DNA from: Thermoplasmata archaeon
GTDB taxonomy: Archaea > Thermoplasmatota > Thermoplasmata > Lutacidiplasmatales > UBA184
Length of the DNA stretch: 43,884 bases
Assembly: GCA_035532555.1 (NCBI GenBank)
Contig: DATKQS010000016.1
Span: 1-43,884 of the forward strand
Reading direction: 5' to 3'
A program made the position numbers and the translations under genes. A model generated the notes under the pieces. The model saw only the letters and a list, made by a program, of their open reading frames with translations. It ran no database searches and was not told the origin of the DNA. Below are positions 40,900 to 43,884 of the stretch, piece by piece (the stretch's first letter is position 1; each line of letters opens with the position of its first letter).

Positions 40900-42174
40900 G
40901 TGACGCGGCAGGGAGCGGAGCTGGTCGGGCTCCTGACGGACCACGGGATCCCCGAGAAGGGGGCCCGGATCTACCTCGCGGCGACCCGCACGGGTCCCCA
41001 GACGGCGGCCGAGCTCGCCCGCGTGACGACGCTCCATCGGGTCGATGCCTATCGCTTCATCCAGCAGCTGACCCGGGAGGGACTCCTACGGGCCACCGGG
41101 GGCCGTCCCATGCGCTTCGCGGCCCTGCCGCCGGAGGCGCTCCTGGACCGGTGGATCCGGGCCGCGTCCGAGCGGCTCGACCGCCTCGAGCAGGATCGCG
41201 AGCGGATCCTGGCCCGGTGGCAGGAGAGCCTGGAGGAGATCGGCGAGAGCGACCCCCGGAAGTTCACGGTCATCGAGGGGCGGGAGGCGATCCGCCGGTT
41301 CCTCATCAAGCGGATCGGATCGGCCGAGCGCCAGATCCTCGTCAGCGTAAGCGGCGGAGCCCTCGCCCGTCTCATGGACACAGGGGTCGACCGGGCCCTG
41401 AAGGAGGCGCATGCGCGCGGGGTCAAGGTCCGCGTCGTCACCGAGGTCGATCGAGCGCACCTGGGCGAGGCGAAGCACTTCGCGGGGTTCACCGAGCTCA
41501 GGCACGTCGAGACGTCCGTCGCGAACCAGGCGGCGGTCATCGATCGCTCGGGCACGCTCCTGTTCCTCTCCGGGGAGGACGACGGAGGGCGCACAGAGGA
41601 GGAGCAGGTCGCCCTGTGGTCGAGTGCCCGGGCGTTCATCGATCTCGCCCGGGAGTACCACCGGCGGCTCTGGATCCCAGCGGTCCGGGCCGAGGAACGG
41701 CTCGTGGAGATCGAGGTGCCGGACACCGCGACGCTCCTTGTCGTGGAGGGTCACGAGCGCGAACCGTTCCGTCGCCTGAAGGAGATGACCGGGCTCGGGA
41801 TGCGCGCGACGGGGATCCGCGAGCTCCAGCTCAAGGTTCCCGAACTCATCCAGACGATCGCACGCCAGATCGGCCGGCAGATCGCCAACGAGGTCGAAGG
41901 AGGTACGCCAACGGAAGTGGCGCGCTCGCTCCAATCGTACTATCAGGCGCACACGTCGAGCCGGCTCGAGATCCTCAAAGAGCGGCCCCTCACCGTGCGC
42001 GTGACCAACTGCTTCGCGTGCACCAACGGCTCGACCGAGATCGGGCGCGTGATGTGCCCGCGCCTATTGCGCTCGGTGATGGAGACCCGCCTCGGCAGCC
42101 GCTGGGAGGTCTCGAAGCCCGACCCTACGCGGCACGCCACTCGCGGCTGCGTGTTTTCGATCACCGCGGGATGA
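40900..42174 (+). CDS. TrmB-family transcriptional regulator with C-terminal V4R-like domain
   Basis: The 424-residue protein starts with a TrmB-type winged helix (about 1-80; LTDHGIPEKGARIYLAATRTG), followed by a coiled coil (about 85-115) and a phospholipase D-like sensor domain (about 120-280). The last 90 residues carry Cys and acidic residues in the order of a V4R domain: VTNCFACTNG, VMCPRLLRSVMETRLGS and RGCVFSI. V4R domains bind small molecules or metals. Sugar-sensing TrmB proteins instead end in a sugar-binding domain. The target genes are unknown. Confidence 0.82.
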   Translation: MTRQGAELVGLLTDHGIPEKGARIYLAATRTGPQTAAELARVTTLHRVDAYRFIQQLTREGLLRATGGRPMRFAALPPEALLDRWIRAASERLDRLEQDRERILARWQESLEEIGESDPRKFTVIEGREAIRRFLIKRIGSAERQILVSVSGGALARLMDTGVDRALKEAHARGVKVRVVTEVDRAHLGEAKHFAGFTELRHVETSVANQAAVIDRSGTLLFLSGEDDGGRTEEEQVALWSSARAFIDLAREYHRRLWIPAVRAEERLVEIEVPDTATLLVVEGHEREPFRRLKEMTGLGMRATGIRELQLKVPELIQTIARQIGRQIANEVEGGTPTEVARSLQSYYQAHTSSRLEILKERPLTVRVTNCFACTNGSTEIGRVMCPRLLRSVMETRLGSRWEVSKPDPTRHATRGCVFSITAG

Positions 42175-42226
42175 TCGCTTCGCGACGCGCGCGTGCGAGT
42201 CCAGGGGGCCGAGGGAGGCGTCCGAT

Positions 42227-42472
42227 CTACGCTCCGCCACTCTCGGCAGAGTCCAGGGTCTTCTGGTAGGCTCCCGAGCCCCAATCCACTCGCGGGAGCC
42301 CCGTCTCGGCTCTGAAGAGGATCACCGACTCGGGGGCGAACCCCGCGTAGTGGTTGTTGAAGAAGGCGAAGGTGGAGCGAACGCGTGGGGCGACGTTCTT
42401 GACCCGTTCCGCAGCTGCATGGCGCGAGTGCTCTATCGCCCGGGGGTCGCTCCGGGATTTCTCGCGCCCCAT
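42227..42472 (-). pseudogene. DUF72 protein, C-terminal remnant
   Basis: The 81-codon frame encodes what looks like the C-terminal end of a DUF72 TIM-barrel protein: the helix before the block TFAFFNNHYAGFAPES, then the final helix. Complete DUF72 proteins have about 240 residues. Upstream in this frame a stop codon appears within 7 codons of the first ATG, and no other part of the family is seen in 42473-42608. The gene has therefore lost its first two thirds. No function is expected. Confidence 0.65.
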
Positions 42473-42608
42473 AGGAACTAGGTGCCTTTACCTCCGACCC
42501 CCGAGGTACGCCCTCCGCCGGACCGCGTGTGAAACGAACGACACACGAGACCGCGGGTTGGGGAGCCGTAATACCCCGGATCCTCCATTCCCACCGAAGA
42601 GGTACTAC

Positions 42609-43415
42609 ATGCCGAACGCCCCGATTTCGGTACCGGGAGAGGGCCGGACCCTCGAAGCATATCTCGCGCTGCCCGAGGAGCGGACGGGACCGCGCCCAGC
42701 CGTCATCGTGATCCACGAGATCTTCGGACCCGATCGCCACATCCAGGATGTGGCACGACGATTCGCCCGGGAGGGCTACATCGCCATCGCGCCCAACCTT
42801 TTCACTGGAGAGATCCAGCAGCTCCTGACGCCCGAGGCGATCGCGACCGGCTTCGGATTCTTGCGGGGCCTTCCGCCCGAGGTGCAGCGGGATCCCGCGC
42901 AGATCCAGGCGCGGATCGCGGCGCTTCCACCGGAGAAGAGGGCCGTGCTGGCCGCACTCATGAAGATCCAAGACCCTGCCCAGCACGCGAAATTCGCACA
43001 GGACCTTCGCGCGGTGGCTCGGTACCTCCGAGGGCGGAGCGACGTTGAGCCTCGGAAGGTCGCGAGCGTCGGATTCTGTTTCGGCGGCGCGATGTCCGGG
43101 CGGCTCGCATGTGTGGACCCGGATCTCGCCGCAGCCGTGATCTTCTACGGCAACGCTCCGCCGGCCGATCAGATCCCCCACATCCGGTGCCCCATCCTCG
43201 GGCTCTACGGCGCCGAAGATCATCGGATCGCCGACACGATACCGAAGTTCGCGGAGGAGGCGAAGGAAGCCGGCGTGCGTCTGACCTACCACATCTATCC
43301 CGGAGCTCCGCACGCGTTCTTCAACGATACCCGCGTCGAGCTGTATCGTGCCGAGGCGGCCGCGGATGCGTGGAAACGCGTGCAGGCGTTCCTCCGAACG
43401 GAGTTCGGACGCTAA
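42609..43415 (+). CDS. Dienelactone hydrolase family protein
   Basis: The 268-residue alpha/beta hydrolase has the Cys-type nucleophile in GFCFGGAMS, the acid in GAEDHRI and the histidine in PGAPHAFFND, which together are the dienelactone hydrolase triad. The N-terminal block VIVIHEIFGPDRHIQDVARRFA is also typical. A middle region of about 45 residues (rich in Gln and Ala) is longer than in the basic enzyme. ATG 42609 follows AGAGGT; a possible TATA element CGTAATAC is at 42567-42574. Natural substrates of archaeal members are mostly unknown. Confidence 0.9.
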   Translation: MPNAPISVPGEGRTLEAYLALPEERTGPRPAVIVIHEIFGPDRHIQDVARRFAREGYIAIAPNLFTGEIQQLLTPEAIATGFGFLRGLPPEVQRDPAQIQARIAALPPEKRAVLAALMKIQDPAQHAKFAQDLRAVARYLRGRSDVEPRKVASVGFCFGGAMSGRLACVDPDLAAAVIFYGNAPPADQIPHIRCPILGLYGAEDHRIADTIPKFAEEAKEAGVRLTYHIYPGAPHAFFNDTRVELYRAEAAADAWKRVQAFLRTEFGR

Positions 43416-43481
43416 GGGGGTCCCCATGCTCGCCGAGACAAGGAGCGTGCACGGTCGCTCGCTCTCCGCCGAAACCGACGC

Positions 43482-43613
43482 ATGGAGGATTCGCGCCTTG
43501 GTGAGGACTTGACGGGGCGTGCCCCGGTTCGCCGGTGCTCCTGGGCCGAGAGCGACCCGCTGATGCGCGCCTACCATGACGATGTCGGCGAGCGCAAGCC
43601 CCCCTACTTGTAG
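43482..43613 (+). pseudogene. tag: 3-methyladenine DNA glycosylase I, 5' fragment interrupted by an insertion
   Basis: The frame begins MEDSRLGEDL and continues with RRCSWAESDPLMRAYHDDV, which is the N-terminal signature of Tag proteins (RC-W---DPL--AYHD, with the zinc-ligand Cys). In Tag the next residues should be EWG or WG followed by proline. Instead the match ends at about 43583-43586 and the frame hits a stop at 43611-43613 inside the hairpin that precedes tnpB. The rest of the gene would lie beyond the inserted element, outside the window. Confidence 0.75.
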
Positions 43614-43648
43614 GGGGTTATAGCGAGCCCCCTATCTACGCTGGGGGC
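43587..43648 (+). mobile_element. Left end of an IS200/IS605-type element, with two hairpins
   Basis: Between the break in tag and tnpB are two stem-loops. The first, CCCCCTAC/GTAGGGGG, is a perfect 8-bp stem at 43600-43617 with a TT loop. The second, GCCCCC/GGGGGC, spans 43627-43648 with a 10-nt loop. IS200/IS605 elements carry subterminal hairpins at their ends that the transposase recognises, and lack inverted terminal repeats. The exact left boundary is uncertain by several bases. The right end and any tnpA lie outside the window. Confidence 0.6.
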
Positions 43649-43884
43649 ATGGATGGAGTGCTACCGCCGAAGATGTATCACCCGAACAAGTACCGCCTCT
43701 ACCCGTTTCCGAATCAGGAGCGGGAACTCCTCCGACAGTTCGACGAGTTGCGCTTTCTCTGGAACTACGCGCTCGAACAACGGCAAGATGCGTGGCGGAA
43801 AGAGAAGCGATCCATCTCGTACGTGGACCAGTGCCGGGGCCTTGCCAAGTGGAGAGCCTACGACCAGGAGGGGGTCGGGAGGGT
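43649..43884 (+). CDS. tnpB: TnpB-like RNA-guided nuclease, N-terminal part (runs off window)
   Basis: The open frame starts MDGVLPPKMYHPNKYRLYPF and continues with the helix-turn-helix region typical of IS605 OrfB/TnpB: LRFLWNYALEQRQDAWRKE. Only 78 codons are present, so the RuvC-type catalytic residues and the C-terminal zinc finger cannot be checked. ATG 43673 is an alternative start. TnpB proteins act as RNA-guided nucleases, ancestors of Cas12, with a guide RNA from the element's right end. Confidence 0.85.
   Translation, partial: MDGVLPPKMYHPNKYRLYPFPNQERELLRQFDELRFLWNYALEQRQDAWRKEKRSISYVDQCRGLAKWRAYDQEGVGR

What the first reader, a model, noticed from the sequence alone, without database searches (positions are those of the whole stretch)
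43482..43884. tag gene apparently interrupted by a TnpB-bearing element
Seen: a good N-terminal Tag signature ends abruptly around 43583-43586; within 65 bp come two hairpins and the start of TnpB on the same strand. Inference: an IS200/IS605-type element inserted near codon 35 of tag, leaving the cell without this 3-methyladenine glycosylase unless another copy exists. The junction would define the target site, which in these elements is also the TAM recognised by TnpB.
Basis: partly seen in the sequence, partly recalled or inferred. Interest (0 to 1): 0.65.

Follow-up and report, generated by a model that had tools for sequence, protein, structure and literature searches.

The report
DNA-repair gene broken by jumping element
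In this archaeon a small jumping element carrying a TnpB nuclease gene landed inside tag, a gene for repairing alkylated DNA, and a later deletion removed most of that gene together with half of the element; this is an ordinary mobile-element gene loss, here resolved to the base.

Summary
The window is one whole contig (C16) of a draft Thermoplasmata genome and ends inside tnpB because of a repeat-induced assembly break. A close relative (G001, about 94% DNA identity) has dienelactone hydrolase, an intact 195-codon tag and a methyltransferase in a row. Here tag runs to the conserved Tyr-His-Asp (window 43580). At 43581 the left end of a TnpB-only, IS200/IS605-type element begins. Of 14 left ends examined, 13 follow TGAC and one TGGC. 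Four sister insertions have empty sites in the window's genome, each with a single TGAC and no duplication, so TGAC is the target and the predicted TAM. Beyond the window, contig C7 holds the other side: tnpB cut at about codon 224 of 418, fused in frame to the last 8 tag codons and stop, then the methyltransferase. So a deletion of about 1.1 kb removed the element's right half and about 161 tag codons. No other Tag-family gene was found, but an AlkA-like glycosylase remains. The tag relic and this TnpB copy are probably dead. New member of a known kind; low general interest.

The parts
43482..43580 (+). 5' remnant of tag (33 codons from ATG 43482, or 24 from TTG 43509, which aligns with the relative's ATG), ending in the conserved Tyr-His-Asp
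   Evidence: TIGR00624 match of 24 aa; DNA alignment to the intact tag of G001
43577..43580 (+). TGAC target site, predicted TAM; native tag sequence (CAT GAC)
   Evidence: TGAC at 13 of 14 left ends, TGGC at one; single TGAC in four empty sites; YHD conserved in tags of relatives
43581..43884 (+). left part of the TnpB-only IS200/IS605-type element, up to the assembly break; continues, after an estimated 76 bp, in contig C7
   Evidence: 99% match to C21 and 81-82% to C13/C23 starting at this boundary
43600..43617 (+). left-end hairpin CCCCCTACTTGTAGGGGG
   Evidence: fold; covariation among sister copies
43649..43884 (+). 5' part of tnpB; in the full locus the frame is cut at about codon 224 and fused to the last 8 tag codons (C7:6884-6498)
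   Evidence: Pfam HTH_OrfB_IS605; C7/C10 comparison
42610..43415 (+). dienelactone hydrolase (DLH) gene upstream, the synteny anchor
   Evidence: Pfam DLH 4.1e-50; same gene next to intact tag in G001

Best explanation
A TnpB-only IS200/IS605-type element inserted, in the orientation of tag, directly 3' of the tetranucleotide TGAC in the Tyr-His-Asp codons, without target duplication, presumably moved by a Y1 transposase acting from elsewhere in the genome. A later deletion of about 1.1 kb joined tnpB codon ~224 to the last 8 codons of tag. It removed the element's right end with the presumed omega-RNA and guide region, the later RuvC motifs and zinc finger of TnpB, and some 161 tag codons. 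Both genes are now probably pseudogenes. Shown: insertion site, target, truncation, absence of another Tag-family gene in the assembly. Inferred: transposition in trans, order of the two events, loss of function.
For: Near-identical or homologous copies share the left boundary after TGAC. G001 holds DLH-tag-methyltransferase contiguously. C16 and C21 share exactly their last 141 bp, and C7 and C10 exactly their first 141 bp, as expected of a k=141 assembly-graph break at a two-copy repeat. C21 and C10 flanks are adjacent in G001 (C6:70661/70665), leaving C16-C7. C7 reads tnpB ... KFLRRD, then SVQRARRG-stop, then the tag downstream region at 93% identity to G001. No PF03352 match in the genome. 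Four sister insertions have empty sites with one TGAC. Hairpins at both ends covary.
Against: The C16-C7 link crosses a short unassembled piece (estimated 76 bp) and rests on synteny with G001. An inversion between the two element copies would pair the contigs the other way, though the 3' tag remnant would still abut a truncated tnpB. The empty tag site of G001 has CGAC, not TGAC (one synonymous difference), so the T of the target is inferred from the family rule.
Confidence: 0.93

Rival explanations
1. The junction is an assembly or binning artefact, with a tag fragment wrongly joined to a repeat.
For: The contig ends inside a multi-copy element.
Against: The junction lies 304 bp before the contig end, outside the 141-bp shared overlap. 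The boundary is exactly that of the other copies. Contig C7 independently shows the 3' end of tag fused to the same element.
Confidence: 0.03
2. Alternative pairing: recombination between the two near-identical elements inverted the segment between them, so C16 continues into C10 and C21 into C7. Tag would still be split by the element.
For: In G001 the two sites lie in opposite orientation on one contig, so inversion is geometrically possible.
Against: Needs an extra event; the pairing C16-C7 and C21-C10 reproduces the gene order of G001 at both sites.
Confidence: 0.07
3. A single event: the element arrived already truncated, or its insertion was coupled to the deletion of tag.
For: Both losses meet at one junction.
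Against: By the established mechanism (PMC8612924), a copy lacking its right end should not be excised and inserted by a Y1 transposase, and the left end is standard. Insertion first, then deletion, is simpler.
Confidence: 0.1
4. The truncated tnpB-tag fusion (about 232 aa) is kept as a domesticated DNA-binding regulator, like the nuclease-dead TnpB-derived repressors (TldR).
For: The frame stays open across the deletion, given the estimated 76-bp gap.
Against: The right end, which carries the omega-RNA and guide in known elements, is gone; the fusion was seen in one genome only.
Confidence: 0.03

Closest known systems
IS200/IS605 family, TnpB-only (IS1341-type) elements; ISDra2 and IS608 as reference elements
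   Same: TnpB with HTH, RuvC and zinc-finger regions in intact copies; hairpins near both ends; insertion 3' of a fixed short target without duplication (ISDra2: TTGAT, IS608: TTAC; PMC8612924)
   Different: Target is TGAC; no tnpA in the element; this copy lacks its right half
Solo-TnpB elements of Sulfolobus islandicus (PMC10640517)
   Same: Archaeal TnpB without TnpA; motif at the left end taken as TAM
   Different: TTTAT (solo) or TTTAA there, TGAC here, in a GC-rich genome (window 65-70% GC)
Tag, DNA-3-methyladenine glycosylase I (TIGR00624, PF03352)
   Same: N-terminal RCSWAESDPLMRAYHD motif, and the last 8 codons of an intact ortholog on C7
   Different: About 161 of 195 codons are missing; pseudogene

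Membership tests
IS200/IS605 (TnpB-only) element | TnpB protein with OrfB HTH, RuvC and zinc-ribbon domains | tested here: met
   Sister copy C13: PF12323, PF01385, PF07282. The window's own copy keeps only the HTH and the first RuvC motif.
IS200/IS605 (TnpB-only) element | Insertion 3' of a fixed short target, no target-site duplication | tested here: met
   TGAC at 13 of 14 left ends; four empty sites with one TGAC
IS200/IS605 (TnpB-only) element | Subterminal hairpins at both ends | tested here: met
   Compensatory changes; covariation score reached by 0 of 500 shuffles at each end and higher than every slid version
IS200/IS605 autonomous element | Y1 transposase TnpA within the element | tested here: not met
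   The one PF01797 gene found in the genome lies on C19 beside a different TnpB
OMEGA/TnpB RNA-guided nuclease | omega-RNA from the right end, and cleavage next to the TAM | not testable with these tools
   Needs RNA and biochemistry; the window copy has lost its right end
Tag glycosylase | Full-length PF03352 domain | tested here: not met
   No PF03352 match in the genome; the intact ortholog in G001 scores 3.6e-70

The most novel reading that the evidence does not exclude
The in-frame fusion of the TnpB N-terminal half (about 224 residues) to the tag C-terminus has been kept as a nuclease-dead DNA-binding regulator.
Probability: 0.03. Interest if true: 0.6.

Novelty: new member of a known kind. 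Interest (0 to 1): 0.22.

Why it matters
It gives a base-exact target (TGAC), supported by empty sites in a relative, for a TnpB family of GC-rich Thermoplasmata, hence a testable TAM prediction for an archaeal TnpB. It also documents how a repair gene was lost: insertion, then deletion.

Tried and rejected
The PF03352 search of the own genome did not find the tag ends because both are too short; C7 was found through tnpB instead. Rfam finds nothing in 42000-43884. No held paper links TnpB with a TGAC target (the two hits are unrelated by title). The C13 flanks have no counterpart in G001 and the C23 flank matches only on one side, so these two sites gave no empty-site test. Hairpin 2 was rejected as a conserved element feature.

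Full report
Place. The window is the complete contig C16 (43,884 bp) of a 1.60-Mb, 27-contig draft genome, G000. Its near relative G001 has a contig of 799,357 bp, equal in length to JAKASQ010000001.1, Thermoplasmata archaeon isolate YP1.bin63, so the window is very probably from a Thermoplasmata archaeon. The genome's own name was not shown.

Observation. The open frame at 43482-43613 begins with a Tag N-terminus. The 24 residues MTGRAPVRRCSWAESDPLMRAYHD match TIGR00624 at E = 0.0022, and the DNA aligns to the intact tag of G001 up to TAC CAT GAC at 43580 and not beyond. The whole 43-aa frame gives no Pfam match, not surprising for so short a piece. TnpB begins at 43649 (HTH_OrfB_IS605, 3.5e-12).

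Element boundary. DNA from 43577 on recurs at C21 (99%), C13 (81%) and C23 (82%). In 14 left ends from G000, G001 and other MAGs, 13 follow TGAC and one (L138) TGGC, with unrelated sequence before it. Right ends finish in GGAGGATGTCAC or a one-base variant. Full copies measured are 1361-1373 bp after TGAC.

Target and absence of duplication. For four G001 copies the window's genome holds the uninterrupted site. Joined flanks with a single TGAC align through the junction with no gain or loss there. Two joined flanks also restore reading frames: at C23 of G000 one reading ...LRLNVTDGNARAERLYRSMGF..., which looks like a GNAT acetyltransferase, and at G001 C6:459.7 kb MTPFECVPNFSEGRDE, which resembles a formiminotransferase N-terminus (the gene names are my reading). 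In tag the GAC encodes the Asp of Tyr-His-Asp, present in all 15 relatives' tag loci that the motif search picked up (that search required Tyr-His-Asp/Glu-type codons, so it illustrates rather than proves conservation), and G001 has it at this very place, so it is native. This is the IS200/IS605 rule: ISDra2 inserts 3' of TTGAT without duplication, and the same motif is the TnpB TAM (PMC8612924).

Beyond the window. C16 and C21 end at the same base of tnpB and share exactly 141 bp; C7 and C10 begin at the same base and share exactly 141 bp. That looks like a de Bruijn graph break (k = 141) at a two-copy repeat whose middle, about 76 bp by comparison with C13, is missing. The flanks of C21 and C10 are adjacent in G001, at C6:70661 and 70665. 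C16 and C7 correspond to the two sides of tag in G001: DLH, tag at 629458-628943, methyltransferase at 628780-628091. So C16 most simply continues into C7.

Second event. C10 carries tnpB to its end (314 codons from the break). C7 follows it closely up to ...KFLRR and then reads (D)SVQRARRG-stop, which is the C-terminus of G001 Tag (...FRRSSVQRARRG-stop), and goes on as the tag downstream region at 93% identity. The relic frame is tnpB codons 1 to about 224 of 418, plus 8 tag codons; 236 + 76 bases keeps the frame. About 161 tag codons and about 0.63 kb of the element are gone. The order, insertion then deletion, is inferred.

Consequences. No PF03352 gene was found in the 96%-complete genome. 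A 211-aa HhH-GPD protein on C24 is closest to DNA-3-methyladenine glycosylase 2 among NCBIfam models (E = 6.3e-8, but 32.6 bits against a cut-off of 229), and two other HhH-GPD genes exist, so some alkylation repair may persist. Several genomes of the genus that are over 90% complete also lack a Tag match, so it is probably dispensable in this group. The genome has one Y1 TnpA, beside a different TnpB; transposition in trans is plausible but unproven.

Hairpins. The left-end hairpin and a right-end hairpin show compensatory changes (covariation score reached by 0 of 500 shuffles in each case; the sequences are related, so this is supportive rather than a probability).

Verdict. A correct observation and a largely correct reading; the system is ordinary. 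What is added is the exact junction, the target TGAC, the other side of the locus and the second deletion.

Noticed in passing
G000:C23 (locus L007), element copy near 35.6-37.0 kb: A sister element interrupts what looks like a GNAT acetyltransferase gene; joined flanks restore the frame.
   Followed up: partly
G001:C6:459.7-461.0 kb (L092): A sister element sits just after the start codon of a gene whose restored N-terminus reads MTPFECVPNFSEGRDE; the window's genome has the uninterrupted site at C24:175035-175534.
   Followed up: partly
G000:C19:38685-40250 (L132): The only Y1 transposase gene found, next to and divergent from a distant TnpB (27% identity); a possible source of TnpA in trans. 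A hairpin near it (CCCCCCAACTTGTTGGGGGG) resembles those of the TGAC elements.
   Followed up: partly
L138 (DAIDCO010000018.1): One sister copy has TGGC instead of TGAC at the left and TCAA instead of TCAC at the right end, possibly a matched change of target and end.
   Followed up: no
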